DNA of 64,000 nucleotides from Candidatus Altimarinota bacterium (GTDB lineage: Bacteria > Patescibacteriota > Gracilibacteria > JAUYGZ01): assembly GCA_029233985.1 (NCBI GenBank), contig JARGOK010000001.1, positions 1,581-65,580 on the forward strand, in the 5' to 3' direction. Of this stretch, positions 1 to 29,673 are shown in pieces. Position 1 is the stretch's first letter, and each line of letters opens with the position of its first letter. Position numbers and translations under genes: made by a program. The notes under the pieces were generated by a model. That model was not told the origin of the DNA and did no database searches. It saw only the letters and a program-made list of their open reading frames with translations.

Positions 1-191
1 GCATTTCCATCGGTATCAAATTCCTCTCTTTTTCCTGATAAAACTTCTTCCAGATACATAATGATTTCTTGGCAGCTTTTGTCATCACCTTGAATATCTG
101 TATCTAGATATGTCCCTATTAGATAGAATTTTTTGTTTTCTGTTCGAGTCTGTAGTCTACGTTCTTCATTTCTTGTATAAAAAATTTTCAT
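1..191 (-). CDS. Candidate immunity protein, copy 1 (partial, runs off window)
   Basis: Only the N-terminal 63 codons are present; the gene continues beyond position 1. The start ATG is the complement of 189-191. The translation begins MKIFYTRNEE and then follows the same scaffold as the three complete copies beside it (KFYLIG, a DIQGD block, SCQEII, YLEEV.SGKREEFDTDGNA). It is the last visible member of the tandem family downstream of the EndoU toxin gene. Its 5' half differs from its neighbours while the segment near position 1-60 is nearly identical to copy 3, which suggests recombination between copies. The immunity role is inferred from position only. Confidence 0.8.
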   Translation of the reverse strand, partial: MKIFYTRNEERRLQTRTENKKFYLIGTYLDTDIQGDDKSCQEIIMYLEEVLSGKREEFDTDGN

Positions 192-212
192 AGATTCACT
201 TGCTTTGTTATT

Positions 213-596
213 CTAGTAAAACTCCACTTCTTTCACATCTCCCAAGTCGACTTCCATATGCGTCATGGATTTATCTGTGATGAATGTTAGCCAACCCCTA
301 ATAGCTTTTTCAAAGGCCTCAATATTACATGTGACTTCCTCTACTGGGTCGTCTAAGTACATATTTTGGATATAGGCGAAATCTGATTTAAGAAGAAGTA
401 TGTGTGCATTTCCAGACCCCTGCCATTCTTTTCTTTTTCCTGATTTGACTTCTTCTACATAGGTAATGATTTCTTGGCAACTGATTTCATCACTTTGAAT
501 ATCACTCTCTAAATATGAGCCTATTAGATAGAATTTTTTGTTCTCTGTTCGAGTATGTAGTCCGAACTCTTTGTTTTTTATATAAAAAATTTTCAT
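213..596 (-). CDS. Candidate EndoU-toxin immunity protein, copy 2
   Basis: This is a 127-residue soluble acidic protein with no signal peptide or membrane segment. It is a tandem paralogue of the genes at 618-1001 and 1063-1446, and the last 50 or so residues (EEVTCNIEAFEKAIRGWLTF to EVEFY) are almost invariant among the copies. The middle segment (SGKRKEWQGSGNAHILLLKSD) is unique to this copy, so it is the variable part. The gene lies in the same direction as the EndoU toxin and about 20 bases from its neighbours. Small multicopy genes directly 3' of a polymorphic toxin gene are typically immunity genes. I do not recognise a named immunity family here. Confidence 0.85.
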   Translation of the reverse strand: MKIFYIKNKEFGLHTRTENKKFYLIGSYLESDIQSDEISCQEIITYVEEVKSGKRKEWQGSGNAHILLLKSDFAYIQNMYLDDPVEEVTCNIEAFEKAIRGWLTFITDKSMTHMEVDLGDVKEVEFY

Positions 597-617
597 AGAT
601 TTACTTGGTTTGCTATT

Positions 618-1001
618 CTAGTAAAACTCCACTTCCTTCACATCCCCCAGGTCGACTTCCATATGCATCTTAGATTTATCTGTGATGAATGTTAGCCAAC
701 CCCTAATAGCTTTTTCAAAGGCCTCAATATTACATGTGACTTCCTCTACTGGGTCATCTGTGTACATGTTTTGGATATAGGCGAAACCAGGCTTAAGGAC
801 TAAAATATGCGCATTTCCATCGGTATCAAATTCCTCTCTTTTTCCTGATAAAACTTCTTCCAGATACATAATGATTTCTTGGCAGCTGATTTCATCACCT
901 TGAATGTCTGAAAAAAGATATGACCCAATCAAATAAAACTTATCATCAATTGATGGATACTGGATGCCATCTTTTTCTTGTCGTGTGTATATGATTTTCA
1001 T
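618..1001 (-). CDS. Candidate EndoU-toxin immunity protein, copy 3
   Basis: This is a 127-residue paralogue of copies 2 and 4. The N-terminus (MKIIYTRQEKDGIQYPSIDD) is the most divergent in the family, while the C-terminal half is nearly identical to the others. The segment YLEEVLSGKREEFDTDGNA matches partial copy 1 rather than adjacent copy 2. The spacing to copy 2 is 21 bases, consistent with co-transcription. There is no Shine-Dalgarno sequence before the ATG. The immunity function is inferred from synteny with the EndoU toxin. A different specificity from the other copies, based on the N-terminal variation, is speculation. Confidence 0.85.
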   Translation of the reverse strand: MKIIYTRQEKDGIQYPSIDDKFYLIGSYLFSDIQGDEISCQEIIMYLEEVLSGKREEFDTDGNAHILVLKPGFAYIQNMYTDDPVEEVTCNIEAFEKAIRGWLTFITDKSKMHMEVDLGDVKEVEFY

Positions 1002-1062
1002 AGGATTATGATGCTTATGGCGTGTTCTTGTAAAATGAAGAATGATTTATTTGAAGTGGTTG

Positions 1063-1446
1063 TTAATAAAACTCCACTTCTTTCACATCCCCTAGATCGA
1101 CTTCCATATGCGTCATAGATCTATCTGTGATGAATGTTAACCAACCCCTGATAGCTTTTTCAAAGGCTTCAATATTACATGTGACTTCTTCTACTGGGTC
1201 ATCTGTATACATGTTTTGGATATAGGCTGCTTTATTATTTATTGTGAGAATATGTGCATTTCCATCGGTATCAAATTCCTCTCTTTTTCCTGATTTGACC
1301 TCTTCTAGATACGTAATGATTTCTTGGCAGCTGATTTCATCACCTTGAATATCGCTCTCTAAATATGAGCCTATTAGATAGAATTTTTGATCTTCTGTTC
1401 GAGTATGAAGTCCAAACTCTTTGTTTTTTATATAAAAAATTTTCAT
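1063..1446 (-). CDS. Candidate EndoU-toxin immunity protein, copy 4 (toxin-proximal)
   Basis: This 127-residue protein is encoded 16 bases downstream of the EndoU toxin stop, so it is the most likely cognate antidote. Its N-terminus (MKIFYIKNKEFGLHTRTED) is nearly the same as copy 2. Its central part (SGKREEFDTDGNAHILTINN) combines the copy 3 type motif with a unique stretch. The C-terminus is shared by all copies. It is predicted cytoplasmic and globular, without Cys-rich or membrane segments. The gap to copy 3 is 61 bases, the largest in the array. The function is inferred from gene order. Confidence 0.87.
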   Translation of the reverse strand: MKIFYIKNKEFGLHTRTEDQKFYLIGSYLESDIQGDEISCQEIITYLEEVKSGKREEFDTDGNAHILTINNKAAYIQNMYTDDPVEEVTCNIEAFEKAIRGWLTFITDRSMTHMEVDLGDVKEVEFY

Positions 1447-1462
1447 AGATTTACTTGGTTAA

Positions 1463-3319
1463 TTATTGGATTAAGTGTGGATAAGCTGTAGATATTTGTC
1501 CATCTAAACTGATATGACCTTCTATCTCTAAGCCCCCAACAGATGTTCCCCTCCATTTACCATTGATTATTTTTGAATTTTTGAAGGCGGACTCAATTTC
1601 AGCTTTCACCTTATCACGTGACCAGTGATCAGGGAAAAAAGTCGATGTAGAAGGTTTTTCTAGCCACTGTCCGGTTTTTTTATTGAAAATTTCTACTCGA
1701 GCATTGTATACACCGTTTGGTTGTTTGTTAAAAAGTGATCCAGGTTTTATTCGTGATGTTTTAGAAATAGAAGATCCACTACCTCTATAATGAAAACCAG
1801 ATGACCTATACTGGGTTGATTCTTTTACATTTTTTCTTACTTTTATTTCTCCGTCTAAAATATGGTCCCAATCAACTGGGGGCATTTTTCCTTTTCGAGC
1901 TTGGCTGATGATATCTTCTGGATTAATTCTTTTTCTCGTTGCTGCTTGTGATGATTGGATTTTGTTTAGCTTGGCACTAGCTCCACTATTTGTTGCTTTT
2001 ACTAGCTTCATTTCTCCTTTTAGTCCATGAACTGCATCATCTGCAAAACGCCTGACTCCTTTCATTGAGTCCATAATTGTATCTCCTCTTCGTATTACAT
2101 TTTTTACCGAACCAATCACAGGAATAAGTCCAATTCCATCTAAGGCAGTGTTTCCTACATGGCTCCAGGACCATTCCCAATGAGTAATATCATGGGTAAG
2201 GTCTCGGAGATCCATAAAGATATCAGCTCCAGTTAGCCCAAGCCCGATTTCTCCTGCTGTACCGAGAAGTGTTGCTTTCTCTGAATATCTTCCAAGTAGT
2301 ATTTGCTCAAAACTGTCTCCGAAATAGTTTCTCATACCTGAAGATTTTGTTATACCCATCAACCCTGCAGAAATGGGGACTCCTAGCGTAGCTGCTATTG
2401 CTGGATATATACTGTATGTCATAATTTCTTTAAACCCAGGCGCGCTGATGAACTCCTGAAGAGTTCCACCTGCTTCCGCCCACCCTCCATCATCTGCAGA
2501 GCTTATCTCGGGATAAAACCAAGTACTCACCAGAAGAAACAAAACGCTTGTTTTAATCCATTTTCCAGGAAGAGTACGCAGAGACGAACGTGCATTCCAA
2601 AGGAAAGTTCCACTCAAAACAAGAATCACTATACTTCGCCATTCTTTTTCTACTCGTAGAGTATGTACTGATTGAAAACTGATCCAATATCTCAACAAAT
2701 AAGCTACAGATACACCAACTACTAGTACGTTGAAAATTGCGACTGCTTCAGACAAACTGATTTGTTTGCGAAGCTTTTCACCAAATACACAGGCAACTGC
2801 GAGATAAAAAAGAATAACAAGAGCTGTTCCTAGTCCTGATACGGTAGAGAAGATGAACCACATACTCATGCCTAAATTTCCAGCTCTTACAAGAACTGGC
2901 CCCCAGTAAAGTGTCGCTGCTGCACTAAAACAAATACAGCTCAGAGCAAAAGGTGTATGAATTAATTCACATTGTTGTGCTAACACAACAGGAGTGTTGA
3001 GCCATTCTCTTAGTGTTTTTACAACACCATTCTGTCGTGCAGATGCAAAAAAATAATACAAAATACTGGAGAGTAGTGCCCAGCTGATGATTCCTGCATC
3101 ACTTGTTATTCTATTTGATATCAATCCATCTAGAGGGCCACTATTCCAGCCTTCATTGAGATATGCCAAGGCGAGTATATGAAGAAGAAACCCAAGGAGG
3201 CCAATTATTATACTATAAATAAGACTGCTTTTTACTCCTTTCAAAAACCCTATTGCAAGCAATTTTATATAGTGCTGCAAGGTGAGGTCGTCCAAGCTTG
3301 ATTGTTTTGTGTTTCTCAT
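1463..3319 (-). CDS. Membrane-anchored polymorphic toxin with C-terminal EndoU RNase domain
   Basis: The 618-residue protein has three parts. Residues 1-270 hold several hydrophobic segments (about 30-53, 78-92, 125-175, 195-212, 228-240, 257-270). Residues 350-425 form a linker of the pre-toxin type (GADIFMDLRDLTHDI, then DGIGLIPVIGSVKNV). Residues 482-618 match bacterial EndoU nucleases (PF14436-like): WDHILDGE with His486, GFHY with His510, STFFPDHWS at 558-567, GGLEIEG, and a terminal TAYP with Tyr613. The family cleaves RNA, often tRNA, when delivered into a target cell. The gene starts 7 bases after the toxin-less membrane paralogue stops and is followed by four candidate immunity genes. 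The domain call is strong; the delivery route and target are unknown. Confidence 0.88.
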   Translation of the reverse strand: MRNTKQSSLDDLTLQHYIKLLAIGFLKGVKSSLIYSIIIGLLGFLLHILALAYLNEGWNSGPLDGLISNRITSDAGIISWALLSSILYYFFASARQNGVVKTLREWLNTPVVLAQQCELIHTPFALSCICFSAAATLYWGPVLVRAGNLGMSMWFIFSTVSGLGTALVILFYLAVACVFGEKLRKQISLSEAVAIFNVLVVGVSVAYLLRYWISFQSVHTLRVEKEWRSIVILVLSGTFLWNARSSLRTLPGKWIKTSVLFLLVSTWFYPEISSADDGGWAEAGGTLQEFISAPGFKEIMTYSIYPAIAATLGVPISAGLMGITKSSGMRNYFGDSFEQILLGRYSEKATLLGTAGEIGLGLTGADIFMDLRDLTHDITHWEWSWSHVGNTALDGIGLIPVIGSVKNVIRRGDTIMDSMKGVRRFADDAVHGLKGEMKLVKATNSGASAKLNKIQSSQAATRKRINPEDIISQARKGKMPPVDWDHILDGEIKVRKNVKESTQYRSSGFHYRGSGSSISKTSRIKPGSLFNKQPNGVYNARVEIFNKKTGQWLEKPSTSTFFPDHWSRDKVKAEIESAFKNSKIINGKWRGTSVGGLEIEGHISLDGQISTAYPHLIQ

Positions 3320-3326
3320 ATTGTAG

Positions 3327-4343
3327 TTATGATGAGATCCAATGGAGATAGTCTGGATGTTTTTTGTACACTTCTTTTAGTTGTTGGTAGGCGAGTTCAT
3401 TCAAGAGATCAGTTATCAGGCACACAAACACACAGAAAAATGAAGCTATTGCACTGTAGAGCAGTACTTGCCAGAAGCCATCATTGCTCATCCATGTTCC
3501 AAGGTTTCCTTTGGCTGTGTCCCAACCACCAATGTATGCATATGCAGAAGGGGATGAGAACAACAGAGGTACTATGAGAAGGGCTACTCTTCTTGGTGTG
3601 CGAACAATAAGTAGTACAAGTGCTAGTGAGAAGAGAAACAAACTCGATAATGACGCAGTTTGAAATTGGTAGACTAGTGCAGTACCAAGAAAACTTCCAA
3701 TGAGAACTACAGCAATTAATGAAATAGAGAAATGTATAGGTTTTTGCGCTTTCCATATGCTTCCAAACAGTTTTTCAAAAAGATGGCAAAGAAAAAAGAA
3801 AATTCCTATACCAGTTCCAGATACAAGTACTAAGACTTGTGCTATCAACACCATGTACAAACTGTGATCAGACCAATCTTGTAAGACATAAATGCTTGCA
3901 GAGCAACTTATCAGCCAAATTGGTTGGCTCCTCAAAACCCCGACTTTTTGTATATAATGCATGAGCATTATCGGACTCGATAAGACCTGGTAAAAAGTCT
4001 GCAGAAAGCCTTCTTTTCGAAATGATGAAATAATTGTCATTACGACAGCTGATCCTACAATCCAACTCAATATTGGACTCGACCAATTATCTGTCATAAA
4101 AAGATAGGCTTTCCATTCTCGACCACCAATTCCGTTATTTTCTACTGCAAGCAAATAGAGATGTGTGCCAAATGCACAAAGCCCGATAAATAAGTACAAG
4201 AGGTAAGAGCCTTGTAGAGTTTTCCAGCTAAATACACAAAGTGTTTGAAGAAATCCTTGTAGATCATCTTTCACAATTGTCGAAATAGAAAGTTTTGGGC
4301 TTTGTTTTGCAGGCTTCATAAAAAAAGGGTGACGAGTAAGCAC
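3327..4343 (-). CDS. Polytopic membrane protein, toxin-less paralogue of the EndoU-protein N-region
   Basis: The 338-residue protein has multiple hydrophobic segments and lacks any nuclease domain. Its layout follows residues 1-320 of the downstream EndoU protein: an N-terminal hydrophobic pair, an ILSW or ISW motif before the next segment, LSSPIML against LNTPVVL, LFEKLFG against VFGEKLR, then a GGW..A.G.L..(F/W)(I/M)S..GF(K/W) block near residues 275-295 followed by a last membrane segment. This points to an ancient duplication. It could be a partner or export component for the toxin, or an ancestor onto which the EndoU domain was grafted. A downstream ATG at 4319 (MKPAKQ) is an equally plausible start. 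The role is inferred. Confidence 0.8.
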   Translation of the reverse strand: MLTRHPFFMKPAKQSPKLSISTIVKDDLQGFLQTLCVFSWKTLQGSYLLYLFIGLCAFGTHLYLLAVENNGIGGREWKAYLFMTDNWSSPILSWIVGSAVVMTIISSFRKEGFLQTFYQVLSSPIMLMHYIQKVGVLRSQPIWLISCSASIYVLQDWSDHSLYMVLIAQVLVLVSGTGIGIFFFLCHLFEKLFGSIWKAQKPIHFSISLIAVVLIGSFLGTALVYQFQTASLSSLFLFSLALVLLIVRTPRRVALLIVPLLFSSPSAYAYIGGWDTAKGNLGTWMSNDGFWQVLLYSAIASFFCVFVCLITDLLNELAYQQLKEVYKKHPDYLHWISS

Positions 4344-4351
4344 TAACTTTC

Positions 4352-4777
4352 CTAGGAAGTTTTATAAAACGCATGCTTTCGAATGGTGAAGGCTAACACC
4401 ACTGGTGTACCCATGATGAGAATTGTCGCAGGATCCATACCGATGAGTCCAAAGAAAAGAGCGATTCCCCCCACTATAAGGGTAAAGGTTATTGGCCAGT
4501 GTTTTCCATCCCAGTATCCTTTCCCAATGAAAAATGTGAAAAGAGCCCCAATGAGAATCATTAGTGCACCAATAATTCCAAGACCAGCAAAAATAGAGGT
4601 CACAGCTGCACCAACTGCTTCATTTCCTTCTGTTGCGCTAATCATTTCTCCTGCTCCAAAACCAAGAAGTGACGATACTGATCCGATAGTAAATGCTACA
4701 AACAGCTGATAGGCAGTCATAGCATAAGCTGCTAGGGCAAGTGCTGTCCCTTGCCATGGACGTTGTGAATGAGACAT
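4352..4777 (-). CDS. Small polytopic membrane protein, first gene of the toxin operon
   Basis: The protein is 141 residues from the ATG at 4777 (MSHSQRPWQGTALALAAYAM). An in-frame extension to 4834 adds 19 residues of poor character and is disfavoured. Four hydrophobic stretches are visible, around residues 10-35, 55-80, 92-112 and 115-130, with Gly/Ala-rich first helices. It ends 8 bases before the 338-residue membrane protein, so the three membrane genes and the immunity array form one transcription unit. The first half loosely resembles VirB2/TrbC-like pilin arrangements, but I see no diagnostic motif and make no family call. Confidence 0.7.
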   Translation of the reverse strand: MSHSQRPWQGTALALAAYAMTAYQLFVAFTIGSVSSLLGFGAGEMISATEGNEAVGAAVTSIFAGLGIIGALMILIGALFTFFIGKGYWDGKHWPITFTLIVGGIALFFGLIGMDPATILIMGTPVVLAFTIRKHAFYKTS

Positions 4778-4954
4778 AAACGGAGCTGGTGAAAGAATAT
4801 GATGTATTGATATCAAACCAATACGTATATTCATACACTTTTTGGAGCCTTCTTGTCAATTATTTGGACATTTAGATATCACTAAGTCAGACCAAAATTT
4901 GACAAATATTTTATCAGCATGTTACAAATAGTTATTAGTTTCTATTTTTCAAAC

Positions 4955-11651: not shown

Positions 11652-12188
11652 ATGATGGATGCAAAAGTATTTGTTGAACATATCTACAAGGGAAAGAAGC
11701 GCCGTACTGGTGACCCCTTTGTGAGTCATCCCTATGCAGTCCAGGCTCTTTTAAGGAATGCAGGAGTTGATGACGAAGAGGTTCTTACCGCAGCTTTATT
11801 GCACGACATCTTAGAAGATACAGATCTCAGTAAGTCCTACCTCGCCTTTCGGTTTGGTCTTCGGATAGCAGACATTGTTGAAATGCTCTCTAAGCAAGAT
11901 TTTTGGACGACTGACTTCTGCAAGATGAAAAGTAATATGGATGAAATGGAAATTGGATTTGGACATCATCCAGAAGCTGTTGTCATCAAAATGGCAGACC
12001 GACTCCACAACCTCCAAACTATCGAAGGGTTCAAACCAAAAAAACAGCAAGAGTACCTTTACGAAAGCACAGAGGTTTTGATGCCTGTTTTTGACAGGTG
12101 TTGTACTATTGATAAGCTCAGTCCTTATCATCAGGTCATGCTCAACCTCAAGTCTCAGCTCAATGACACTATCTCCTCTCTAGCCTAG
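11652..12188 (+). CDS. Stand-alone RelA/SpoT-type HD phosphohydrolase
   Basis: This 178-residue protein is made almost entirely of the HD domain seen at the N-terminus of Rel/SpoT. The matching motifs are RRTGDPFVSHP (His26), the ALLHDILEDT box (His51, Asp52, Glu55, Asp56) and KMADRLHN (Asp116, Asn120). The family hydrolyses the 3'-pyrophosphate of (p)ppGpp; single-domain versions are called small alarmone hydrolases (Mesh1-like). No synthetase domain is present in this gene. All metal ligands and the ED pair are retained, so activity is plausible. It is followed 6 bases later by a winged-helix regulator, which suggests a two-gene operon. A nucleotidase acting on another substrate is an alternative. 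Confidence 0.83.
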   Translation: MMDAKVFVEHIYKGKKRRTGDPFVSHPYAVQALLRNAGVDDEEVLTAALLHDILEDTDLSKSYLAFRFGLRIADIVEMLSKQDFWTTDFCKMKSNMDEMEIGFGHHPEAVVIKMADRLHNLQTIEGFKPKKQQEYLYESTEVLMPVFDRCCTIDKLSPYHQVMLNLKSQLNDTISSLA

Positions 12189-15090: not shown

Positions 15091-18000
15091 CTACAGCACA
15101 GATTCTAGTATTTTGAGCTTTTGAAGTAGGAAAATCATCACTTCTGCGGCATCTGAACGAATGCTTAGCTGTGGTCCATGAAACATGTTTTGCTTCTTGC
15201 TGACGTAAACGTCATTTTCAAGAGCGTATGCTACATACTTATCAAACCATACTCCTTTTTCAACATCACGATATTGTCGAGATGCGGTACCAGGATTTGA
15301 AAAGTCTATCCCAGCTGCCTCAAACATGATCTTTAAAAACTCTGACCGGTTTACAGGGTCCCATGGCCGAAAAGAAGTTTTCCCCTGATCGATAGCTGGG
15401 AGATTGTACACGTCAACTCCGATGGATAGGGCAGCTCCCGGACGAAGAACACCGTCTCCATCGACTATTCCAAGTTCTTTTGCTTTGGATATCCAAGGAG
15501 TAAACCATGCATCGATCTCAGTATCGAGGAATGGCTTTTCGGTGATTTCTTCAGATGGAGAGATACAATTTGATTCAAGGACAAACTTTACAAGCTCCGC
15601 TCTATTGAGGTGCTCGTTTGGAGCATATTTTCCAGGACGTATCCCACGAGAAAGACCATAGTTATTGAGAGTAATAATGGCTGACTCGTCACGATGACCT
15701 GTAATGTCTTCAAAAGACTCACTATTTTCTGGATGAATACATCCCTTGAGAAGCGCTTTTTCCGATGGTGCAAGAGTATAGTTATCCTCTGCAATACCTG
15801 CACCGTCATCATATGGGAAATCTCTTGGTTGGCCATTGTCGAATCTTGGTCCACCACCACCTCCTCCCGAACCACCAGAACCACCTGTTGATCCAGTTCC
15901 GGTTGTTCCAGTAGATCCTCCCGTGGTTCCAGATCCTGATGTTGTTCCTGTAGCTCCGCCTCCACTTGTTCCACCAGTTGATCCTGTTGATGATGAGCTG
16001 CCAGAACTTCCTCCGGTAACACCTCCTGTGCTTCCTCCTGACCCGGTTGTTCCAGTTGTCGAAGCAGAACCTGATGTACCTGATGAACTACCACCAGTCG
16101 ATCCAGAGCCTGTACTGCCTCCAGTAGTCCCTGTGCTCGTTGTGGTTCCTGATGAACCACTTCCAGTCGTTCCGCTAGTAGCTCCAGAACCTGTACTACC
16201 ACTAGTACTCCCTCCGCTTGCTCCCGTAGAACCAGAACCTGATGTTCCTGAACTAGACCCTCCCGTACTTGCTGTACTGCCTCCAGATGTCCCAGTGGAT
16301 CCTGATCCAGTCGTTCCGGTAGATCCTGAGCTGGTCGCACCTCCTGTGGAGCCTGATCCAGTTGTGCCAGTGGATGCCGAGCCTGTTGTTCCTGATGTAG
16401 TACCTCCACCACTAGTGCCACCCCCTGAAGGATTTGATCCTCCAGAAAGTGCGGTTCCCTTGACTCCTTCTACTTCCCAGAAGAGAACTCCATTGATGAG
16501 AATCAACTCTACTGGTTTTCCATCAGCTGATACTGGTGCCTCTGGAATATCTTCTGATCTGTGATTTCCTGGACCCATATCTAGTCCTGCAAGAGCTGCT
16601 TCAGTTCCCATTCTCTGATATGTAAAGTAGGGGAATCGGCTTTTTTCTTCATCTACAAATCCTATTGCATTTGGTTTGACCACCATGAAATCAAACTCGT
16701 TGTCTTTTGCGTAGATAGTCTTTCCGATGACGGTAAATTTTCCAATCGTGTCATCTACCCATGTCCCACGGATATCATCTCTATCCATTCTGACTCCATT
16801 CATCCCTGGATCACATGCATTTACAAACCCTGCCATGATTGGTTCAGTTCCTTTCGTGAAAAGGATTCGCTGTTCTCCTGTAAAAGGAACGCTTCCTTGA
16901 GTCGTATCTGAAACAATAGTGTTTGGAGAATTGTATAGTCGAGCTACTACACCATTTTGTAGTCCTGTGATCTTCGCAGAACAATCGAGGCCTGATCCAG
17001 AGAATCCTGTAGTACCTCCACCGCCTGTTCCTGTTGGACCACCACTCGTAGCATTTCCTCCTGATCCTCCTGTAGAACCTGATCCTGATGTTCCAACGCT
17101 AGATCCTCCAGTGTTTCCGGTTGATCCACCAGTTGTCCCTGTGGACCCTGAGCTGGTTGTGCCGTTTGCTGACCCTCCTGTTGAACCAGAAGCCGAGGTA
17201 GATCCTGATGTTCCAGCGCTAGCTCCTCCTGTGCTACCTGTCGATCCACCAGTTGTCCCTGTGGACCCTGAGCTGGTTGTTCCGTTTGCTGATCCTCCTG
17301 TTGAACCAGAAGTTGAAGTCGATCCAGTTGTTCCATTTGAAACTCCTGACCCACTTGTTCCTGAATTGTTTCCACCAGATGATCCAGTACTTCCACTTGC
17401 TGTTGATCCTGATGTTCCATTTGATCCTCCAGACACAGCTCCAGCATCAACACCACCGCCACTTCCACCGCTTGTTGATCCTGATCCATTGGTACCGTCA
17501 AAATTGATAACAGAAGTTCCTCCGCCACCTGATGTACCTGATGTACCTGTTATATTTACACCGCCTGATGTTCCACTGGTTGTTCCGCCTGTTGTACCAG
17601 TCGTTCCATTTGGTCCAGCTGGATCATCGAAATCGATAGTAATGAAATCATCATTATTTCCATTGTTTTCTGGATCGATTTTAAACTGATATGTTTCAGC
17701 CTCACCTCCGATGAGTCTCCCAACTCTAAAAGCTGAAGAGTCTCCATCCCATGTCGACATAACAACAGCAGGGACACGAGTAAACATTAGTCGCCCATAA
17801 AACCCTTTATCCGCTCCAGAAGCAAAATTTTTGAGTCTCTCAAGATTTGTTCTTCCAATTCTTTCTTCGTTGAGTTTTAGACAGATGGTTTCAACTTTGA
17901 AAACCGAATCGTTTTTTCCGAAGACAACAGGGTAGTTTCTGACCAACCACTCGTCTCCTTCTTCAATCTCTCTCTTTCCATCGTATGTCCCACTGAGATC

Positions 18001-21000
18001 AGTATCCATCATCATATTGAAGTAAATGACTCCTTTTCTGTATGAGGTAAAGACAACATTGAAACAAGAGAGTTGTTCAGATTCATTTTCCCGAAGGAGA
18101 CTTATTGGTACTTGAGAAAACTCTGGTCTGCGACTGAGTCCATTGATATCTCCATCTTGCTCCCCGTAGTCTGGCTCTTTTTCAAAATCAAGATCTACAT
18201 TATCCCTATCCTGAGGATTGAGCCCTGATGGGTACCCAAGATGAAATTCTCCATTTTTGATTTTGTAAAAGGGGAGCTGGCTCGCATCAAATCCAAATTC
18301 AGCTGATCCGCCTGCCGCAGCATAATACTCTGGGGTAGCTGTTCCTGGACGTGGCTCAGAAGGATACTCGAGAAGCGATGGATCCTCTGGTTTTTTCCAG
18401 GTATTAAATAAAAATGTGGAATGTTCTCCGTGTGGAGTTTGGTTTTTACTATTTCCAAGACCTGCCCGTACTGGCCAAAACCTTCCTACAAGAAGATTTG
18501 GTCTGTCTGGATCGTCCATATCATTTACAGGTATGACAGCAAATGGCTTGAGAAGCTCTGATGAAACCGTAAACCTCCCATAAAACCCATGTTTTCGTCT
18601 CAAATCTGATCCTTTTGGAATATAAAATCGGACTTCATGGACTCCAAATCCCGCACCAAAGATCCGTTGGTTTTCTCTTACAATTCGTGTTTTTCTTTTT
18701 TGAGCTGGGTCACTCGGATCCAGATACGCTTTGTCTGGTGGAAGCATATAATCAACATACTGACCATCACCGTTGAGATCTAGCTGAGCTAAGACGGTGA
18801 ATGAACCCGCAGGACCTGCGGCAGGTGCAGGTGGTTGACCATCGGGTTTTATGAATGGTTTTACAATACCTGCACCACCACCGGCAAAAGCACCTGCTCC
18901 ACCGCCACCTCCTTTTGCTGCTTCACCGTTTACGACAATTTGAAAATAATCGAAAGAACCTTCCTCTAGCATATTGACAATATCTGGAGCCAGGGCGCTC
19001 GGTGGGGCAGGTAGTGGGGGGGGAGCTGGAGCAGGTGCTGGCACCACAAATGGGGCCTTATTCACCACACCCTCCCGATCTTTATCTTTCATGATAGAGT
19101 CTGGAGCTTTTTCTCCATCTACAGTGTTTCCAATGTAAACCTGCTTTGTTTTTTGAGCTAATGGGAAGAAGAGAAATCCAAATTTTCCCCCTGGATTAGT
19201 AGGATTTGCTACCGTATCTCTTGGTTCTGATGGGAAATCGTAGTCTTCTAGATCTTCATCAAATATTTCCCCATAAAACTCAGGTGGAGTCTCGTAGGGA
19301 GGTACAGGAACGGGTTCCCATGGGGGAGTGGGATCATCTTGTGGGTCATTTGGTGGCAGAGGAGTATCCTCATCTCCCTCTGGAAGAAGTTCATCTTCAG
19401 GACATGTTGGGGATTCAATCACACATTCTTCTGGGTTTGAACCAACAATATTCGCATTACAAGTGGCTGCAAGTATTTGTATCTTTGATGCCAGAGCTGC
19501 TTTACTACTTATTCCCACAGCTTCTAATGCACGTTGAACTTGCTGAGCATATCCATAATTTAGTTGTCGGTAGTCACACTGTGGAGTCAGGTATTCATTG
19601 AAAATCTCGAATAATTTTTTTAGTTCATCAAATGGACAATCAGTAGAATAACACCCTTCCTTGTGAATTATTCCTGCATGAGTGGTAACAGTCCCTGGTT
19701 CATCTACAGAAGGATCTAAAGCACATTTATTAGCAAGACTTTGTACTACAGCCAATTGATTTTGAACCTTGAAGGCTTGTTTGTAGTTTCCAAGAGTAAG
19801 TGCCAACACCATCTCTTGATTGAGCTGTTGCGAAATCGTCTCCATACATTTACAAGCAAGGTTTCTATTGACGGCAAAGAGTCGCACGAGTTCTTCGTAT
19901 GTCTCGGGACACCCTGTCCGTGGCGTGGTTTCTGCCTCAGGTTTTGGTGGTGTTTCTTCTGGAGCAGAAGACTTTGGTGTGCCTTCAGCTGGAGGTGCTT
20001 CATAACCAGGGCATTGCTCGAGTTCTTTTTGTAATTCTCTCCTTGTATTTATGTCATCCTCTTGCCTTATTCTTTTTTTTAGATCCTCACAGGAATTATT
20101 CACACTCCGTGAAGAAAAACGGTTTGGGTTTCCTCCTCCTCCTACTACTGCGAGTGTTGTACTTACTCCTCCCCCAAGATCATAAGTAATGCTTCCAGAC
20201 TGTTTATCTGGGTTTGAGATATTGAGTGCTTGGGTGAAGCTTCCTCCTCCGTCAAAAACTTGAGGTCCATCTGCTCCATCAAAACCCACTACAGTCGTGA
20301 GACCTCCTCCTAGCGTAGAAGTAAGTGTAAACATTTGTCCAGGATCATCTGTATTTGTTATTTGAAGTGTTACGGCTGTAGGGCCTACATCTGAAGAAGA
20401 AAGCTGTGAAGGGCTAAAACTAATAGTCGGATCGGCGTCTAGTGCTGTAAGAGATACGGTCACAGTATTCGAGTCCGTATTTCCATCACTTACTTTTAGC
20501 ACACAAGTCCTGGTACCCGATTCGTTTGGCAAAAATGTAGTGGTCACGCTAAAAGTCTCGGTATCTTGTCCAAAACCTGGAGTGTTGTGTATAAGATCTA
20601 CCCCTGGTCCACAGGCGCCTACACCTGGAGCAGGATCAGACCCGACAATTGTTCCTCCTACATCTGAAGCGCTCAGTGGCACAGTGAGCACAAGGTTTGG
20701 GTCTCCAGTGTTTGGATGGTTTGCACTTGCTGAAACAACTCCTGCTACTGTTCCATCGAGAGTAGGTGATGGGTTTGGTTCGTTTACCGTCAGCATAAAA
20801 GTCCCGAGATCTGTAAACCCTCCAGGATTACAATCAAACACACTGGCTTGAAGAGTAAAAACTCTTGGGAATGGTCCCATGACGGTTGTTGTATCGAGTG
20901 TAAATGTAGTGTTTCCACTAGTAATCGCATTGGTATTATTTGTATACTGCACTCTCCCCAGCTCACTTCCTTGTGGTGGTACAAACACCCCACCTGCACT

Positions 21001-21300
21001 TGCTACACCATTCGCAGCAGTAAGTCCAAAATTTGAAGCTGCTTGATTAATAAGAGAAATCACACAAGTGTTCAAATTAAAAATTGAAGCATTGATGGAC
21101 ACTGTTGAGTTCGCTCCAACAACTACCGTACTTGGGGCTGCCATCGAGCCTGGATCGATCGTGCTGGCTTCAGCATTTGGGATCATATTTGCCATCCACC
21201 CCAGAGAATTGAATACCAGTATAAAGCTGGCGAGCAATGCCATCAGCTTTCTGATGGGAACAATGCTCCAAAACATTGAGATGGTTTTTTTGTTTTTCAT
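15091..21300 (-). CDS. Giant (2069-residue) SLH surface protein with Gly/Ser/Thr repeat blocks
   Basis: The architecture is clear. A signal peptide ends near NAEA (residue 45). Ig/cadherin-like beta domains occupy about 48-390. A Cys-rich helical region at about 400-650 carries CPETYEE, ACKCMET and CSTDCPFDELK-like pairs, and a Pro-rich linker follows. Large beta domains fill about 780-1220 and 1430-1610, with FYGRFTVSSE and FYGRLMFTR motifs and calcium-like DLNGDGQYVD and DTDLSGTYDG loops. Two GSTG-type low-complexity blocks lie at about 1223-1430 and 1617-1817, and SLH repeats at about 1850-2069 (NYGLSRGIRPGKYAPNEHLN, AWFTPWISKAKELGIVDGDG, VWFDKYVAYALENDVYV). It is probably a cell-wall-bound stalk or S-layer-like protein. 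A bidirectional terminator follows the stop. Confidence 0.9.
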   Translation of the reverse strand: MKNKKTISMFWSIVPIRKLMALLASFILVFNSLGWMANMIPNAEASTIDPGSMAAPSTVVVGANSTVSINASIFNLNTCVISLINQAASNFGLTAANGVASAGGVFVPPQGSELGRVQYTNNTNAITSGNTTFTLDTTTVMGPFPRVFTLQASVFDCNPGGFTDLGTFMLTVNEPNPSPTLDGTVAGVVSASANHPNTGDPNLVLTVPLSASDVGGTIVGSDPAPGVGACGPGVDLIHNTPGFGQDTETFSVTTTFLPNESGTRTCVLKVSDGNTDSNTVTVSLTALDADPTISFSPSQLSSSDVGPTAVTLQITNTDDPGQMFTLTSTLGGGLTTVVGFDGADGPQVFDGGGSFTQALNISNPDKQSGSITYDLGGGVSTTLAVVGGGGNPNRFSSRSVNNSCEDLKKRIRQEDDINTRRELQKELEQCPGYEAPPAEGTPKSSAPEETPPKPEAETTPRTGCPETYEELVRLFAVNRNLACKCMETISQQLNQEMVLALTLGNYKQAFKVQNQLAVVQSLANKCALDPSVDEPGTVTTHAGIIHKEGCYSTDCPFDELKKLFEIFNEYLTPQCDYRQLNYGYAQQVQRALEAVGISSKAALASKIQILAATCNANIVGSNPEECVIESPTCPEDELLPEGDEDTPLPPNDPQDDPTPPWEPVPVPPYETPPEFYGEIFDEDLEDYDFPSEPRDTVANPTNPGGKFGFLFFPLAQKTKQVYIGNTVDGEKAPDSIMKDKDREGVVNKAPFVVPAPAPAPPPLPAPPSALAPDIVNMLEEGSFDYFQIVVNGEAAKGGGGGAGAFAGGGAGIVKPFIKPDGQPPAPAAGPAGSFTVLAQLDLNGDGQYVDYMLPPDKAYLDPSDPAQKRKTRIVRENQRIFGAGFGVHEVRFYIPKGSDLRRKHGFYGRFTVSSELLKPFAVIPVNDMDDPDRPNLLVGRFWPVRAGLGNSKNQTPHGEHSTFLFNTWKKPEDPSLLEYPSEPRPGTATPEYYAAAGGSAEFGFDASQLPFYKIKNGEFHLGYPSGLNPQDRDNVDLDFEKEPDYGEQDGDINGLSRRPEFSQVPISLLRENESEQLSCFNVVFTSYRKGVIYFNMMMDTDLSGTYDGKREIEEGDEWLVRNYPVVFGKNDSVFKVETICLKLNEERIGRTNLERLKNFASGADKGFYGRLMFTRVPAVVMSTWDGDSSAFRVGRLIGGEAETYQFKIDPENNGNNDDFITIDFDDPAGPNGTTGTTGGTTSGTSGGVNITGTSGTSGGGGTSVINFDGTNGSGSTSGGSGGGVDAGAVSGGSNGTSGSTASGSTGSSGGNNSGTSGSGVSNGTTGSTSTSGSTGGSANGTTSSGSTGTTGGSTGSTGGASAGTSGSTSASGSTGGSANGTTSSGSTGTTGGSTGNTGGSSVGTSGSGSTGGSGGNATSGGPTGTGGGGTTGFSGSGLDCSAKITGLQNGVVARLYNSPNTIVSDTTQGSVPFTGEQRILFTKGTEPIMAGFVNACDPGMNGVRMDRDDIRGTWVDDTIGKFTVIGKTIYAKDNEFDFMVVKPNAIGFVDEEKSRFPYFTYQRMGTEAALAGLDMGPGNHRSEDIPEAPVSADGKPVELILINGVLFWEVEGVKGTALSGGSNPSGGGTSGGGTTSGTTGSASTGTTGSGSTGGATSSGSTGTTGSGSTGTSGGSTASTGGSSSGTSGSGSTGASGGSTSGSTGSGATSGTTGSGSSGTTTSTGTTGGSTGSGSTGGSSSGTSGSASTTGTTGSGGSTGGVTGGSSGSSSSTGSTGGTSGGGATGTTSGSGTTGGSTGTTGTGSTGGSGGSGGGGGGPRFDNGQPRDFPYDDGAGIAEDNYTLAPSEKALLKGCIHPENSESFEDITGHRDESAIITLNNYGLSRGIRPGKYAPNEHLNRAELVKFVLESNCISPSEEITEKPFLDTEIDAWFTPWISKAKELGIVDGDGVLRPGAALSIGVDVYNLPAIDQGKTSFRPWDPVNRSEFLKIMFEAAGIDFSNPGTASRQYRDVEKGVWFDKYVAYALENDVYVSKKQNMFHGPQLSIRSDAAEVMIFLLQKLKILESVL
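15849..16440 (-). repeat. Low-complexity Gly/Ser/Thr-coding repeat block 2
   Basis: About 200 codons consist almost entirely of Gly, Ser and Thr (GSTG, GTSG, GTTG units with occasional Ala and Val). The DNA is a degenerate array of 6-15 base units on the minus strand. The opposite strand reads as an artefactual Pro/Val-rich frame. The block probably encodes a flexible spacer between the beta domains and the SLH anchor. Confidence 0.9.
17010..17625 (-). repeat. Low-complexity Gly/Ser/Thr-coding repeat block 1 with a long internal direct repeat
   Basis: About 200 codons of GSTG/GTSG type interrupt two beta domains of the giant SLH protein. Within it, 17087-17193 and 17207-17313 form an imperfect direct repeat of about 105 bases that shares an uninterrupted identical stretch of roughly 35 bases. 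That indicates recent expansion by unequal recombination or slippage. Confidence 0.88.
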
Positions 21301-21452: not shown

Positions 21453-22166
21453 TTATTTTTCCCTAGTACTCATACGAATTTTTTTCATGCAGTTATCGTG
21501 CATCTTTTCGTATCCAATTCTCTTATGAAAAGCCAACATCATGCACACATCTTTAAAAATTTTTTCAAACGCTATATTGAGGCTTTCATTTGGAATTTTT
21601 TGTATATTTCTTTTGTAAATAGGAATAAATATTTGTGATATTGTTTGCAAAATGCGGAGATATTTTTTTTTGGGGAATACTGCACAAGTCCGAATATTTG
21701 ATAATTGATCAGCCAGCTTTACAATAAACATTTCAGGATGTATTTGTGCTGCAGCCTCGTATTTGCTTGCATAATGCAAGGTTCTAATCTTTATAAGCTC
21801 GCAATCATTTTTGAAGTTTTTCAGAATCTTTTCATCACTCCAGACTCCATATTTTTTTGAGAGATGGAAAAAATCTTTTTTATCATTTTTAGACATTCCG
21901 AGAATTACTTCAGCAATCTCTAAGCCATACATACTTTTTAATTGTAAAAAATTTGTATTTCCAGACTCAATAGTGTCATGTAATACCCCTTTCACAAGAA
22001 TGCTCTCATCTAAAAAACAGGGGAATCCGGTAAACTCACGTAGTATACTTACTACTTCCAGTGGATGAAAAATATAGGCCTCACCAGTGGCTCTATTTTG
22101 TCCACTATGACACATACTTGCAAAAAGTATTGCATCATCAAGCATTTTTTCTTTTGTAGTATTCAT
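21453..22166 (-). CDS. Second HD-domain protein of RelA/SpoT type, degenerate ED motif
   Basis: The protein has 237 residues. The HD motifs are present as FASMCHSGQNRATGEAYIFHP (His34), VLHDTIESG (His63, Asp64, Glu67) and KLADQLSNIRT (Asp153). The EDT box of (p)ppGpp hydrolases reads ESG here, so the second acidic residue is lost, while the metal-binding His/His-Asp/Asp set is kept. The C-terminal 60 residues are Lys-rich and without a known domain. There is no synthetase module. It stands alone on the minus strand, divergent from the MerR-like gene. Compared with the HD protein at 11652 it may have a changed substrate or reduced hydrolase activity. Confidence 0.75.
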   Translation of the reverse strand: MNTTKEKMLDDAILFASMCHSGQNRATGEAYIFHPLEVVSILREFTGFPCFLDESILVKGVLHDTIESGNTNFLQLKSMYGLEIAEVILGMSKNDKKDFFHLSKKYGVWSDEKILKNFKNDCELIKIRTLHYASKYEAAAQIHPEMFIVKLADQLSNIRTCAVFPKKKYLRILQTISQIFIPIYKRNIQKIPNESLNIAFEKIFKDVCMMLAFHKRIGYEKMHDNCMKKIRMSTREK

Positions 22167-25220: not shown

Positions 25221-26255
25221 TCATTTCCTATTGGGTATAATCCAAATATCTTCTGAAAGCATTCCATAGACTTTAGATATTTGAGTTTCCGAAAGCATAC
25301 GAGCATTTGCAATATCTTCTATCCCTCCTTCAATTTCCCCCAATAGCCCCTTTAGTCTTTTTCTAATTAAAGGAGAAAGATCTGGTCTTAATGGAATGCG
25401 CTTTAAGACATTTTCAGTTGATTCAGCAATAACGCCTTTCTTTGTACCCAAAAACTCCATTTCAAAAGCTAAACCACCACCACCTATCAAATCTCCTCTC
25501 ACTTCAGTAGTAAGGATAATAGCTCCAGGCGTATTGCTTACAGCTTCCAATAACTCTCTCGTTTCACCAATTCTTTTTTGTATCCATTCAAAATATTTTT
25601 TTGGATCTCTTTCCTGTTTGTCTATTGATTTATCCCAAACTGTTTCTTCTCTTTCTCTATACAGCATATCACTGCCTCCCATAATACCGCTGTTGTCTAT
25701 TCCTCCAAAGCTACAATCCAACAAAGCCCATGTGAGAGCATTTGTATCTTTTGCCTGTATAAATTCTTTCATTGAATGAATAAGAAAATCGAGTCTGACT
25801 CCAGCTGAACGAGGTGTCCACATTCGTGGAGAATCAACTGTTGCTAAGCTATTTCCCCATATCCCTTTACCAAAATAGCCAAAAAAGGGGACTCTTTCTG
25901 AACGATTTGGGTCATAAAGATGCTTAATGGCATTATGAATTCTCTCTGAAGTTGCATCCTCATCTGTTTCTCCATTCTCATAATCTGGAATAGTCTGAAT
26001 GTTGACATCAGAAAAACTTGCTTTCAGTGCCTCTCGAATAGCTATTACGTCATTTTTTGCACAGCTTAAGGGATTTAAGTGTGTAAAGTTATTAACGCCT
26101 ACAAGTAGAGCATCTAGCTGACCAAGATCTTTTTCACTCTGGTCGGGGAGTACTTGTATGAGTTTTCTTTTGGGAGCTCTAGATAGAGGGTATTCATGCA
26201 TATATGAGTTGTGTAATGACTGCATAGAGACTTTGTCTCTATTTTTAGGCGTCAT
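25221..26255 (-). CDS. Caspase-fold (peptidase C14-like) protein with altered His motif
   Basis: The protein has 344 residues. It matches the p20-like core of bacterial metacaspases and orthocaspases: LDALLVGVNNFTHLNPLSCAKNDVIAIREAL (48-77, beta1 and helix1), VPFFGYFGKG (122-131) where the catalytic GHG normally lies, and WALLDCSFGG (176-185) matching the D.C.SG catalytic-Cys segment (Cys181). The expected His is replaced by Lys130, so peptidase activity is doubtful unless another residue substitutes. A C-terminal helical region follows (300-340). The gene sits between a large Ser/Thr kinase and an unknown protein, all on the minus strand. Caspase-like proteins next to STAND or kinase genes often act in signalling or cell death. 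Confidence 0.68.
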   Translation of the reverse strand: MTPKNRDKVSMQSLHNSYMHEYPLSRAPKRKLIQVLPDQSEKDLGQLDALLVGVNNFTHLNPLSCAKNDVIAIREALKASFSDVNIQTIPDYENGETDEDATSERIHNAIKHLYDPNRSERVPFFGYFGKGIWGNSLATVDSPRMWTPRSAGVRLDFLIHSMKEFIQAKDTNALTWALLDCSFGGIDNSGIMGGSDMLYREREETVWDKSIDKQERDPKKYFEWIQKRIGETRELLEAVSNTPGAIILTTEVRGDLIGGGGLAFEMEFLGTKKGVIAESTENVLKRIPLRPDLSPLIRKRLKGLLGEIEGGIEDIANARMLSETQISKVYGMLSEDIWIIPNRK

Positions 26256-26703: not shown

Positions 26704-29673
26704 CTATTTAAATTTTTTTCCAAATTCATCAGCACTTGCAATTACTTGTCTTAAACTAATTGAAGACTTAGAAAAATATCTATATTGAATTGCTGTTAAT
26801 TTAATATCCCTAAACCTTAGTTTTCTTGGTCTGAATTGATCATTATCAGCTTCTGTTAGTTGCTTAAACATTCCGTCACACATATCATCAATTTTTTCTA
26901 TTTTTTCTTTTTTCTTATCAAGATAAAGCTTCATGTAGATTTTTTCATCTACAATTTTTTTTCCCATTACTAATAAAATCCTTGAACATACTTTGTTTTT
27001 TAATTCTTTTAACATACCAGCTGATTCTATATCTAAACTACTATGCTTTAAGCATATCTTTTGAAATATACTTCCAAATTGTTTTTCTATCTCTTGTGAA
27101 AACCATTTAATTTTTATAAATTCAATTTTATAATCAGGATTAACTTTAATATTTTTCACTTCTTCTAAACAACTGCTAAAGACTTTTAGAGTTTCATAGC
27201 GTGATTTTAAAGCTTTTGCTTTTTTTAATAGTGAAAGAAAAGTTATTTTTTGATAAGCAGTAATTCCTTCGCTCTCTTTCTTTTCTAAAATTGCTTCTAT
27301 GTCATGGTCTATTTTTGATTTATATATATCCCAATCCCTCCCCAAGGCAGAATTAAGATTTTGATTGGAGATTACTCCCAACTCATCTTGCTTTGCCTCT
27401 AAGGACTTTGTCGTATCTGCAATAAATTCGTTCATTTTCTCAAGACGTTCCTTGGCGGCTTTTTCTTTGGCGGCCTTTTTTTCCAAATCATCATTTTCTT
27501 TTTTTATTGTCGTGACTTCGAGAGCCTTCACATTACTGTCAGAGTAGGCCATGAAGCCCAAGACAGTGAGAGCAAGTCCTGCAACGGCTCCAATGGAAAT
27601 GAATTTATTGAGATTGTTTCTTGCCTTGGTTCGTTCTGCAAAGGCTTTCTTTTTCTCTGATCGAGCTATTTTTTCATTATGCTCCGCATTAGAAACATCA
27701 CTTACGGCCTTCAATCGTTTGGACTTCTCTTCTTTATTTTCATGATAGGCCTTCATGGCGCTTTCTGAAATCGACTCTTTGATCTTCAGAAGTGTCTCTA
27801 AAAATTCTTGGCTCGTTGGTCTGATATTTTCATCCTGAGAGCTAGCTTTTTCGAGAAGGAATGCAAACTTGATCATGGCATTGATCTTTGGGTCGATGCT
27901 TTTATCGATCTTTCTTTCGGTTACCTTTTTAACAACATACTTGTGATGCTCTCCAAAGAAACTCTTTAACGCAGGATTAGTCACCTTTACTGCTGGTCCA
28001 GGATTGTTGTTATTGAGGAATTCTGTAGAAATAGTCGTGCATATGGTCATTATGGAGTTCATTTTTTTACCATAGGCATGTGAGAGAGCTTTGTCTGGTG
28101 ACCCATTGGTAATATAGCTATAGAGGGTCATGGCCAGCGCATAGACATCGACCTTGGGAGAGATAGCATCCCCATTTCCGGCATAAAATGCTTCGTGAGA
28201 CATATAGACAGGTGTCCCTGCTGGTTCTTCAGTACCATCTGCGAGGTCTTTTTTCATGGCAAGTCCTGGGTCTCCTATTTTGCAGTCTCCGTTTTTTGTA
28301 ATCAAAACATTGTCGTTTTTGATATCTCTGTGGATAAACCCCGATTTGTGTATAGCGGCGACTCCTTTACTCATATCGATGGCATGCCGCAATACCGTAT
28401 CAAATTCGATATGATTGTGACCTGCTTGGTCGATTCCTTTTCGGTATTTTGTTAGATCCATTCCTCCTTCGATGTATTCGATTGCCATCACCATCGAGTT
28501 TTTTTGGTCAGTCGTTACTCTGTAGACTCCTAGCACATTGACATTTTGCATTTTGGCCAAAGCCCTGGCTTCTTCTTTTATCGCGGAAATACTTTTATCT
28601 CTATTCTCTTCCGTTTCAGGAATAATTTGCACTTTGAGTGCATCCCATCTATCTAGCTCCTTGTCATATCCCTTCAAAACAATTCCACAGGCTCCTTTGT
28701 CAATCCATTGGAGTTGTTCGTATCCTTCGATACGGTACTTGCCGAGACGTATTTGTTTTTTTATGTTTTCCTCAGTGTAGTACTCATCGAGATCTGGTTC
28801 TTCTTCACCGAGAGCTTCATGACAGGCTTCAGCTTTGTCTCTGCTTTCGTCTTCTAAATCCTGATACCTGTTTGCATTCTCTTCTTGCCCAGGTATTTGT
28901 TGGCAAATCTCTGCGAGTCGATGGTAAATCTCTGTCGACTGAATAAAATACGTCTTTGCAAGCTCACAGCCACCTGCTGTGTGAAACACGACACTTGCCT
29001 CCGAACACAAGCTCTGAGCGAGTTTTTCGCAGAGTACAATTTCTTTGTCTCGACAGGTTTTAAAAGCTGCCCAATAATCTTCTCTCCTGCTTGCAAGCTG
29101 AGGGAAGTCATGACAGGCTTCTAGGAGATTTTTGAAAAAACTCAAACCTTGTGAGTATCCAATAATAGCGAGCTCGAGACTATTTTTAGGGTTTTTATTT
29201 CTCTGATGCTGAATACTGAGATAGTGCTGCTCTTGAGCGTGTGCATCAGCACTGACTTTGTATCCTTTTTGATGCCACTCATTAATTTGCTGAACCGTAA
29301 AGGCACTGTTTTTTGCTGGTTTATCATTCTTTTGAAGGGCTGTCTTTTTGCTTGGCAGAAATCGTAAAGTCCCACCTTTCAGAGACATATTGATAGCGTC
29401 TTCACGATTGAGGTTGTAGGCATCGAATGTTGTTGTAGCAACATGAGATGGATTTGACCGGTACCCGCTCACCAATTTTTTAATATCAAGCGATACCTGT
29501 GTCTTTATTGTTTCAGCGCCTTGAAAATCTCCAAAAGAGTCAGAAATACCTCGATTGGTGTTTTCGTGTGGAGATTGAAATTCTACTCCCTGAGCGGACC
29601 TGAAACGTCTCTGAGGAACTGCTCTTTTGGGAAAACTATCAGAAGCTGGTGAATGGTGAGCTCTTTTAGCCAT
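26704..29673 (-). CDS. Transmembrane Ser/Thr protein kinase (Hanks type) with unusual DPG motif
   Basis: The protein has 989 residues. The N-terminal 300 are polar and helical (TPR-like pattern at 165-290). The kinase domain spans about 315-635: glycine loop IDKGACGIVLKG (324-335), DALKV with Lys347, HRDIKNDN (448-455) with catalytic Asp450 and Asn455, GDPG in place of the DFG motif (467-470), SHE in place of APE (492-494), and VDVYALAM with Asp509. A single membrane segment follows at about 691-710, then a coiled coil (715-780) and a Lys-rich C-terminal domain of 210 residues, probably outside the cell. The Asp of DFG is kept but Phe is Pro. A TATAAA box 8 bases before the ATG suggests a leaderless transcript. 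It heads the kinase-caspase cluster. Confidence 0.88.
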   Translation of the reverse strand: MAKRAHHSPASDSFPKRAVPQRRFRSAQGVEFQSPHENTNRGISDSFGDFQGAETIKTQVSLDIKKLVSGYRSNPSHVATTTFDAYNLNREDAINMSLKGGTLRFLPSKKTALQKNDKPAKNSAFTVQQINEWHQKGYKVSADAHAQEQHYLSIQHQRNKNPKNSLELAIIGYSQGLSFFKNLLEACHDFPQLASRREDYWAAFKTCRDKEIVLCEKLAQSLCSEASVVFHTAGGCELAKTYFIQSTEIYHRLAEICQQIPGQEENANRYQDLEDESRDKAEACHEALGEEEPDLDEYYTEENIKKQIRLGKYRIEGYEQLQWIDKGACGIVLKGYDKELDRWDALKVQIIPETEENRDKSISAIKEEARALAKMQNVNVLGVYRVTTDQKNSMVMAIEYIEGGMDLTKYRKGIDQAGHNHIEFDTVLRHAIDMSKGVAAIHKSGFIHRDIKNDNVLITKNGDCKIGDPGLAMKKDLADGTEEPAGTPVYMSHEAFYAGNGDAISPKVDVYALAMTLYSYITNGSPDKALSHAYGKKMNSIMTICTTISTEFLNNNNPGPAVKVTNPALKSFFGEHHKYVVKKVTERKIDKSIDPKINAMIKFAFLLEKASSQDENIRPTSQEFLETLLKIKESISESAMKAYHENKEEKSKRLKAVSDVSNAEHNEKIARSEKKKAFAERTKARNNLNKFISIGAVAGLALTVLGFMAYSDSNVKALEVTTIKKENDDLEKKAAKEKAAKERLEKMNEFIADTTKSLEAKQDELGVISNQNLNSALGRDWDIYKSKIDHDIEAILEKKESEGITAYQKITFLSLLKKAKALKSRYETLKVFSSCLEEVKNIKVNPDYKIEFIKIKWFSQEIEKQFGSIFQKICLKHSSLDIESAGMLKELKNKVCSRILLVMGKKIVDEKIYMKLYLDKKKEKIEKIDDMCDGMFKQLTEADNDQFRPRKLRFRDIKLTAIQYRYFSKSSISLRQVIASADEFGKKFK

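What the first reader, a model, noticed from the sequence alone, without database searches (positions are those of the whole stretch)
1..4777. Membrane-tethered EndoU polymorphic toxin operon in a reduced-genome bacterium
The minus-strand operon encodes a small membrane protein, a polytopic membrane protein, a polytopic protein fused to a C-terminal EndoU RNase domain (His486, His510, Tyr613 visible), then at least four tandem candidate immunity genes. Polymorphic toxins usually carry secretion-linked N-termini such as LXG, filamentous haemagglutinin or Rhs. Here the N-terminus is a multi-helix membrane domain with no known delivery signature. If the organism is a CPR bacterium, this may be a contact-dependent weapon used against a host or relatives.
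Basis: partly seen in the sequence, partly recalled or inferred. Interest (0 to 1): 0.85.

Follow-up and report, generated by a model that had tools for sequence, protein, structure and literature searches.

The report
EndoU toxin with membrane-spanning carrier
A small-genome bacterium of a poorly known group carries a toxin operon in which a membrane-spanning carrier is joined to an RNA-cutting toxin and followed by at least five related antidote genes; a relative joins the same carrier to other predicted toxins, so this looks like an undescribed way to build and probably export antibacterial toxins.

Summary
Window 1463-3319 (minus) encodes a 618-aa protein with a membrane N-terminus and a C-terminal EndoU RNase (PF14436, E 1.5e-19; catalytic His486/His510 conserved). 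It is followed by three complete small genes and a fourth cut by the window edge; beyond lie a 100-N gap and part of a fifth. The small genes belong to a family found directly after EndoU genes in other Gracilibacteria and after one in Streptomyces (weakly Priestia), so 'immunity' is well supported. The decisive result comes from a same-family genome: two loci there carry the same seven-helix N-terminal module and the same downstream membrane gene (77-78% DNA identity to each other), while the toxin C-terminus and the gene after it are completely replaced. That is cassette swapping, the hallmark of polymorphic toxins. The module matches no Pfam family (not LXG, PrsW or haemagglutinin-type) and is nearly confined to this family, with one distant relative elsewhere in the class. 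It ends in a conserved internal signal-peptide-like segment with an A-x-A site, suggesting export and release of the toxin; this is inferred. Known kind (EndoU polymorphic toxin), new trafficking variant. Delivery, contact dependence and target are untested.

The parts
4352..4834 (-). small four-helix membrane protein, first gene of the operon (the start may be 4777)
   Evidence: homologue at the same position in sister locus A, 36% identity, E 2e-34
3327..4343 (-). toxin-less paralogue of the N-terminal membrane module
   Evidence: BLASTP to toxin N-terminus E 1e-9, to sister carriers E 6e-17 to 6e-19; alignment A1
1463..3319 (-). EndoU toxin gene, 618 aa
2369..3319 (-). N-terminal carrier module, aa 1-317, about seven TM helices, shared with sister proteins that have unrelated C-termini
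2495..2557 (-). internal signal-peptide-like segment, aa 255-275, ending in an A-x-A type site before D-D-G-G-W (Ala275, Gly278, Gly279, Trp280 invariant)
   Evidence: alignment A1, topology count; cleavage itself is inferred
1880..2329 (-). pre-toxin linker, aa 331-480, shared with the EndoU protein of G024
   Evidence: 31% identity over aa 332-616, E 2e-34
1478..1867 (-). EndoU RNase domain, aa 485-614
   Evidence: PF14436 E 1.5e-19; catalytic alignment
1063..1446 (-). immunity gene copy 1
   Evidence: PF06062 E 2e-6; related genes follow EndoU in G232/G233 and Streptomyces
618..1001 (-). immunity gene copy 2
213..596 (-). immunity gene copy 3
   Evidence: PF06062 E 1.4e-7
1..191 (-). immunity gene copy 4, cut by the window edge and a 100-N gap; a partial copy 5 and then a conserved membrane-protein gene follow outside the window in L002 (1233-1480 and 231-1229)

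Best explanation
This is a polymorphic toxin-immunity operon of a Gracilibacteria-class bacterium. The 618-aa protein has three parts: a seven-helix membrane carrier (aa 1-317), a pre-toxin linker, and a C-terminal EndoU endoribonuclease. The carrier inserts in the cytoplasmic membrane with its N-terminus inside; its last helix behaves like an internal signal peptide, so the passenger lies outside and is probably cut free by signal peptidase at the A-x-A site before DDGGW. The passenger then enters a neighbouring cell and cuts RNA at uridines. The tandem small proteins bind and block EndoU in the producer and its kin; their variable segments suggest a repertoire against variant toxins. Shown here by sequence: EndoU homology with catalytic residues, operon order, swap of toxin plus downstream gene between loci with a conserved carrier and flank, and recurrent pairing of the immunity family with EndoU. 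Inferred: export, cleavage, delivery, RNase activity, neutralisation.
For: EndoU: 71 bits against a cut-off of 25.3; catalytic residues conserved; the nearest annotated relatives include hemagglutinin-repeat and LXG polymorphic toxins. Cassette swap: in G001, loci A and B match at 77% DNA over the carrier and 78% over the flanking gene, with no match between; the C-termini and the next genes are no more alike than shuffles. The same carrier is on the window toxin (28-29% identity, E 1e-33 and 9e-31). One replaced C-terminus has lytic-transglycosylase-like motifs, the other a glycine-rich hydrophobic stretch; both are followed by multi-TM proteins, whereas EndoU is followed by proteins without TM segments. 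Immunity family: in 353 class genomes the profile occurs only after EndoU; the gene after a Streptomyces EndoU is related (hhalign E 4e-6), that after a Priestia LXG-EndoU weakly. Topology: the loops placed inside are the basic ones, which puts the C-terminus outside.
Against: No experiment. The A-x-A cleavage rests on motif and topology only. A further hydrophobic stretch (about aa 301-317) could span the membrane and keep EndoU cytosolic. AlphaFold of the whole toxin failed (mean pLDDT 36), so the carrier fold is unknown. Toxicity of the other two C-termini is predicted, not established by profile (SLT match E 0.14 only). The carrier is known from only two genomes plus one distant relative. 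One search used a profile containing its own hits, so it tests absence elsewhere, not discovery.
Confidence: 0.82

Rival explanations
1. The protein stays in the cytoplasmic membrane with EndoU facing the cytoplasm, as an intracellular toxin-antitoxin or phage-abortive module; the small genes are antitoxins and no other cell is attacked.
For: A hydrophobic stretch after the DDGGW motif (about aa 301-317) could be an eighth helix; in the toxin-less paralogue it is strongly hydrophobic.
Against: The sister C-termini include a transglycosylase-like domain, whose substrate is outside the membrane, followed by a multi-TM gene. The nearest EndoU relatives with named N-termini are in secreted toxins, and other class members have N-terminal signal sequences or anchors.
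Confidence: 0.12
2. The polytopic protein is a channel component of a type IV-like secretion or envelope machine, and the variable C-termini are accessory enzymes rather than weapons.
For: Small membrane protein plus polytopic protein order; a transglycosylase-like C-terminus is typical of conjugation machines (general knowledge); T4SS_pilin domains abound in the genome (13 matches).
Against: No conjugation-type secretion genes were seen beside the loci in either genome. An EndoU RNase with five immunity copies and full replacement of the C-terminus together with the next gene fit a weapon, not a machine.
Confidence: 0.05
3. The toxin gene was acquired and is now decaying; the array of small genes is orphan immunity kept for protection against others.
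For: Immunity arrays often outlast toxins (general knowledge); a toxin-less carrier paralogue sits in the operon.
Against: The toxin frame is intact, catalytic residues are conserved, and the ORF2-toxin-imm1 spacing of 7 and 16 bases is that of an intact operon.
Confidence: 0.05

Closest known systems
EndoU polymorphic toxins: Neisseria MafB/MafI and LXG-EndoU effectors (PMC4287609; PMC3482391)
   Same: C-terminal EndoU, immunity gene immediately downstream, swapped toxin and immunity cassettes
   Different: N-terminus is a seven-helix membrane module instead of the MafB, LXG or filamentous haemagglutinin trafficking domain; homogeneous array of at least five immunity genes
PrsW-type polymorphic toxins (Zhang et al. 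2012, PMC3482391, section read)
   Same: A polytopic membrane domain fused N-terminally to varied toxin domains, proposed to extrude and release them
   Different: The module has no PrsW match; PrsW genes exist elsewhere in this genome. Release is predicted by an internal signal-peptide-like site, not by an intramembrane protease fused to the toxin
UPF0231 / E. coli YacL (PF06062)
   Same: The immunity proteins match this family over about 60 residues (E 2e-6 and 1.4e-7 for two copies)
   Different: YacL is not known to pair with a toxin (own knowledge); the immunity proteins are tandem, variable and EndoU-linked
DUF5376 (PF17346), the protein next to EndoU in a Fusobacterium plasmid
   Same: Similar size, directly downstream of EndoU
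   Different: No significant relation to the window proteins (hhalign E 0.3); apparently an independent EndoU partner

Membership tests
Polymorphic toxin system | C-terminal domain from a known toxin family | tested here: met
   PF14436 E 1.5e-19
Polymorphic toxin system | immunity gene directly downstream | tested here: met
   16-base gap; family found next to EndoU in other class genomes and Streptomyces; neutralisation itself not tested
Polymorphic toxin system | shared N-terminus with exchanged toxin and immunity cassettes | tested here: met
   G001 loci A and B; window toxin
Polymorphic toxin system | toxicity and neutralisation | not testable with these tools
   needs expression tests
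EndoU endoribonuclease | two catalytic histidines and conserved Ser/Thr motif | tested here: met
EndoU endoribonuclease | uridine-specific RNA cleavage | not testable with these tools
   needs an assay
PrsW-type toxin | N-terminal PrsW protease domain | tested here: not met
   no PF13367 match in any of the four carriers at E 10; the genome's four PrsW matches lie elsewhere
LXG / T7SS effector | N-terminal LXG domain | tested here: not met
   no PF04740 in the genome
CDI (CdiA/CdiB) | TPS and filamentous haemagglutinin repeats in the toxin | tested here: not met
   Pfam scan of the toxin gives only EndoU
UPF0231 (for the immunity proteins) | score above the curated family cut-off | tested here: inconclusive
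   two of three copies over the cut-off of 25 (28.5 and 32.4 bits), the third at 20.2; half-length match

The most novel reading that the evidence does not exclude
The seven-helix module with its internal signal-peptide-like end is a self-sufficient export-and-release device for polymorphic toxins in Patescibacteria, needing only Sec and signal peptidase, and is used by a presumed episymbiont against its host or rival symbionts.
Probability: 0.3. Interest if true: 0.8.

Novelty: new variant of a known kind. Interest (0 to 1): 0.6.

Why it matters
Weapons of Patescibacteria are almost undescribed: the literature searches here turned up no paper on polymorphic toxins in Gracilibacteria and no title on them in Patescibacteria. 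A carrier that holds an exchangeable toxin on a seven-helix membrane domain would be a trafficking class beside LXG, CDI, Rhs and PrsW, and the cassette exchange makes it directly testable. The immunity family also suggests a role for the uncharacterised UPF0231/YacL type of protein as an EndoU inhibitor, recurring in Gracilibacteria, Actinomycetota and perhaps Bacillota.

Tried and rejected
Viral contigs: no relative of the toxin; phage records: no relative of the EndoU domain or of the toxB C-terminus. PDB sequence searches with the toxin, immunity profile and sister C-termini: nothing significant. AlphaFold of the immunity protein (pLDDT 70) found no PDB fold match; the full toxin model was unusable, so no fold search was made with it. 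The weak carrier hit in G590 is a ComEC-like protein by inspection of its sequence, a chance membrane match. G035 looked similar and was kept as a distant relative (hhalign E 2e-7). Promoter and terminator scan: counts near those of shuffles, not used. A genome-contig scan with the carrier profile returned only the sister genome.

Full report
Observation. Gaps are 8 and 7 bases between the first three genes and 16 bases from toxin to first small gene, as in an operon. EndoU is unambiguous: PF14436 at 71-75 bits against a cut-off of 25.3, residues 485-614, the only match in the 1.66-Mb genome, and no match in 14 control genomes. His486 and His510 are invariant in nine EndoU domains of the class, with the [ST]-hydrophobic-F-P and [ST]-x-[FY]-P motifs largely kept.

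Extent. The window edge is a scaffold gap of 100 N within the array (L002 1481-1580). Beyond it a partial further copy (1233-1480) and a 332-aa membrane-protein gene (231-1229) continue the operon. At least five copies therefore exist unless the two sides of the gap are one gene, and the gap may hide more; the two sides overlap in the same part of the gene (both carry the EEFDTDGNA stretch), so they are separate copies as assembled. The three full copies are 76-87% identical in protein, with near-identical C-terminal halves and two variable segments, and the copies are mosaics of each other, as expected from duplication with recombination.

Organism. The class to which this genome is assigned includes a genome (G025) with in-frame TGA codons whose genes in that region, among them a ribosomal protein L3-like gene, read through under code 25, the SR1/Gracilibacteria code. 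I infer Gracilibacteria in Patescibacteria; the window genome itself reads with code 11. The sister genome G001 is record JAUYGZ010000029.1, an unnamed metagenome-assembled bacterium.

The N-terminal module. A search of related genomes with the whole toxin found, in the sister genome G001, two loci matching only residues 8-318. The proteins there (631 and 538 aa) share 72% identity over the first 336 residues and nothing after. At the DNA level loci A and B match at 77% from the start of the carrier to about residue 316 and at 78% over the flanking membrane gene, with no similarity between. The C-termini and the next genes are no more alike than shuffled sequences. The flanking gene is also at the end of the window operon at 62% identity, and in 21 genomes (own and near relatives) it occurs only at these three loci. 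This is replacement of a toxin plus immunity cassette between fixed ends. The window gene 3327-4343 is a toxin-less paralogue of the same module.

What the sister cassettes carry. Locus B's C-terminus has motifs of a lytic transglycosylase (IIYKEISHLNP, GSSVGIGQIN, ARNYNGG); the profile match is only suggestive (PF01464 E 0.14). Locus A's has a glycine-rich hydrophobic stretch and no match. Each is followed by a different five- or six-helix membrane protein. Membrane immunity for toxins acting in the envelope and soluble immunity for an RNase is the pattern expected of true toxin-immunity pairs; this is inference.

The immunity family. The small proteins match UPF0231/YacL over half their length (E 1.4e-7 and 2.2e-6; a third copy is below cut-off). 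In 353 class genomes UPF0231 rings only here and in one weak place. A profile made with the genes following EndoU in G232 and G233 (hhalign to the window copies E 1.2e-5) is found nowhere else in the class (its members are its own hits, so the test is of absence elsewhere). Outside the phylum, the gene after EndoU on a Streptomyces plasmid is related (hhalign E 3.6e-6), and the gene after an LXG-EndoU in Priestia is weakly so (0.007 to the window copies, 1.5e-4 to the Streptomyces protein).

Mechanism. Averaged hydropathy gives seven helices before an invariant A-x-x-G-G-W region. The loops that come out inside carry the basic residues (5-6, 3-4, 3 and 3-4 per loop in the rows counted), and the last segment is preceded by basic residues and followed by (A/Y)-GGW with acidic residues, so the passenger should lie outside and could be freed by signal peptidase. 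A further moderately hydrophobic stretch at about 301-317 leaves room for doubt. Other class EndoU proteins have an N-terminal signal sequence or anchor in front of EndoU (G024, G138, G326), which agrees with export. How the RNase reaches a target cytoplasm is unknown.

Comparison. EndoU toxins with downstream immunity are known (MafB/MafI, PMC4287609; survey PMC3482391), and polytopic PrsW domains fused to toxins were proposed there as an extrusion pathway. The present module is not PrsW, LXG or haemagglutinin-type. It was found in two genomes of one family among 353 of the class and 380 spread over the phylum, with one distant relative in another family of the class on a 1227-aa protein (G035, hhalign E 2e-7). 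It is a new trafficking variant of a known kind of system. EndoU itself is in 13 of 353 class genomes, so polymorphic toxins are a sparse but real trait of the class.

Noticed in passing
L010 7481-9097 and 6911-7471: Sister toxin with lytic-transglycosylase-like C-terminus and a five-helix candidate immunity protein, in genome G001.
   Followed up: partly
L018 6599-10282: 1227-aa protein of another family in the class: zinc ribbon, then a distant relative of the carrier module, then about 900 residues without any significant Pfam match.
   Followed up: partly
L048 3351-3944, L051 1-598: Stand-alone short EndoU proteins with an N-terminal membrane anchor in TGA-recoded genomes of the class.
   Followed up: no
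L065 2524-4436: Small Fusobacterium plasmid record: EndoU gene with DUF5376 genes on both sides, suggesting DUF5376 is another EndoU immunity family.
   Followed up: partly
window 25221-26255 and 26704-29673: Caspase-domain protein (PF00656 E 1.5e-4) whose expected catalytic-His region reads YFGKG, next to a Ser/Thr protein kinase gene.
   Followed up: partly
window 11652-12188 and 21453-22166: Two separate HD_4 (SpoT-like hydrolase) genes within 11 kb.
   Followed up: partly
window 15091-21300: 2069-aa secreted-looking protein with long T-S-G-rich repeats and an SLH-like C-terminus; the repeat region has higher G+C than its surroundings.
   Followed up: no
G000 C5:546657-552283: Cluster of repeated T4SS_pilin domain matches inside long open frames (one frame of 2068 aa).
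   Followed up: no
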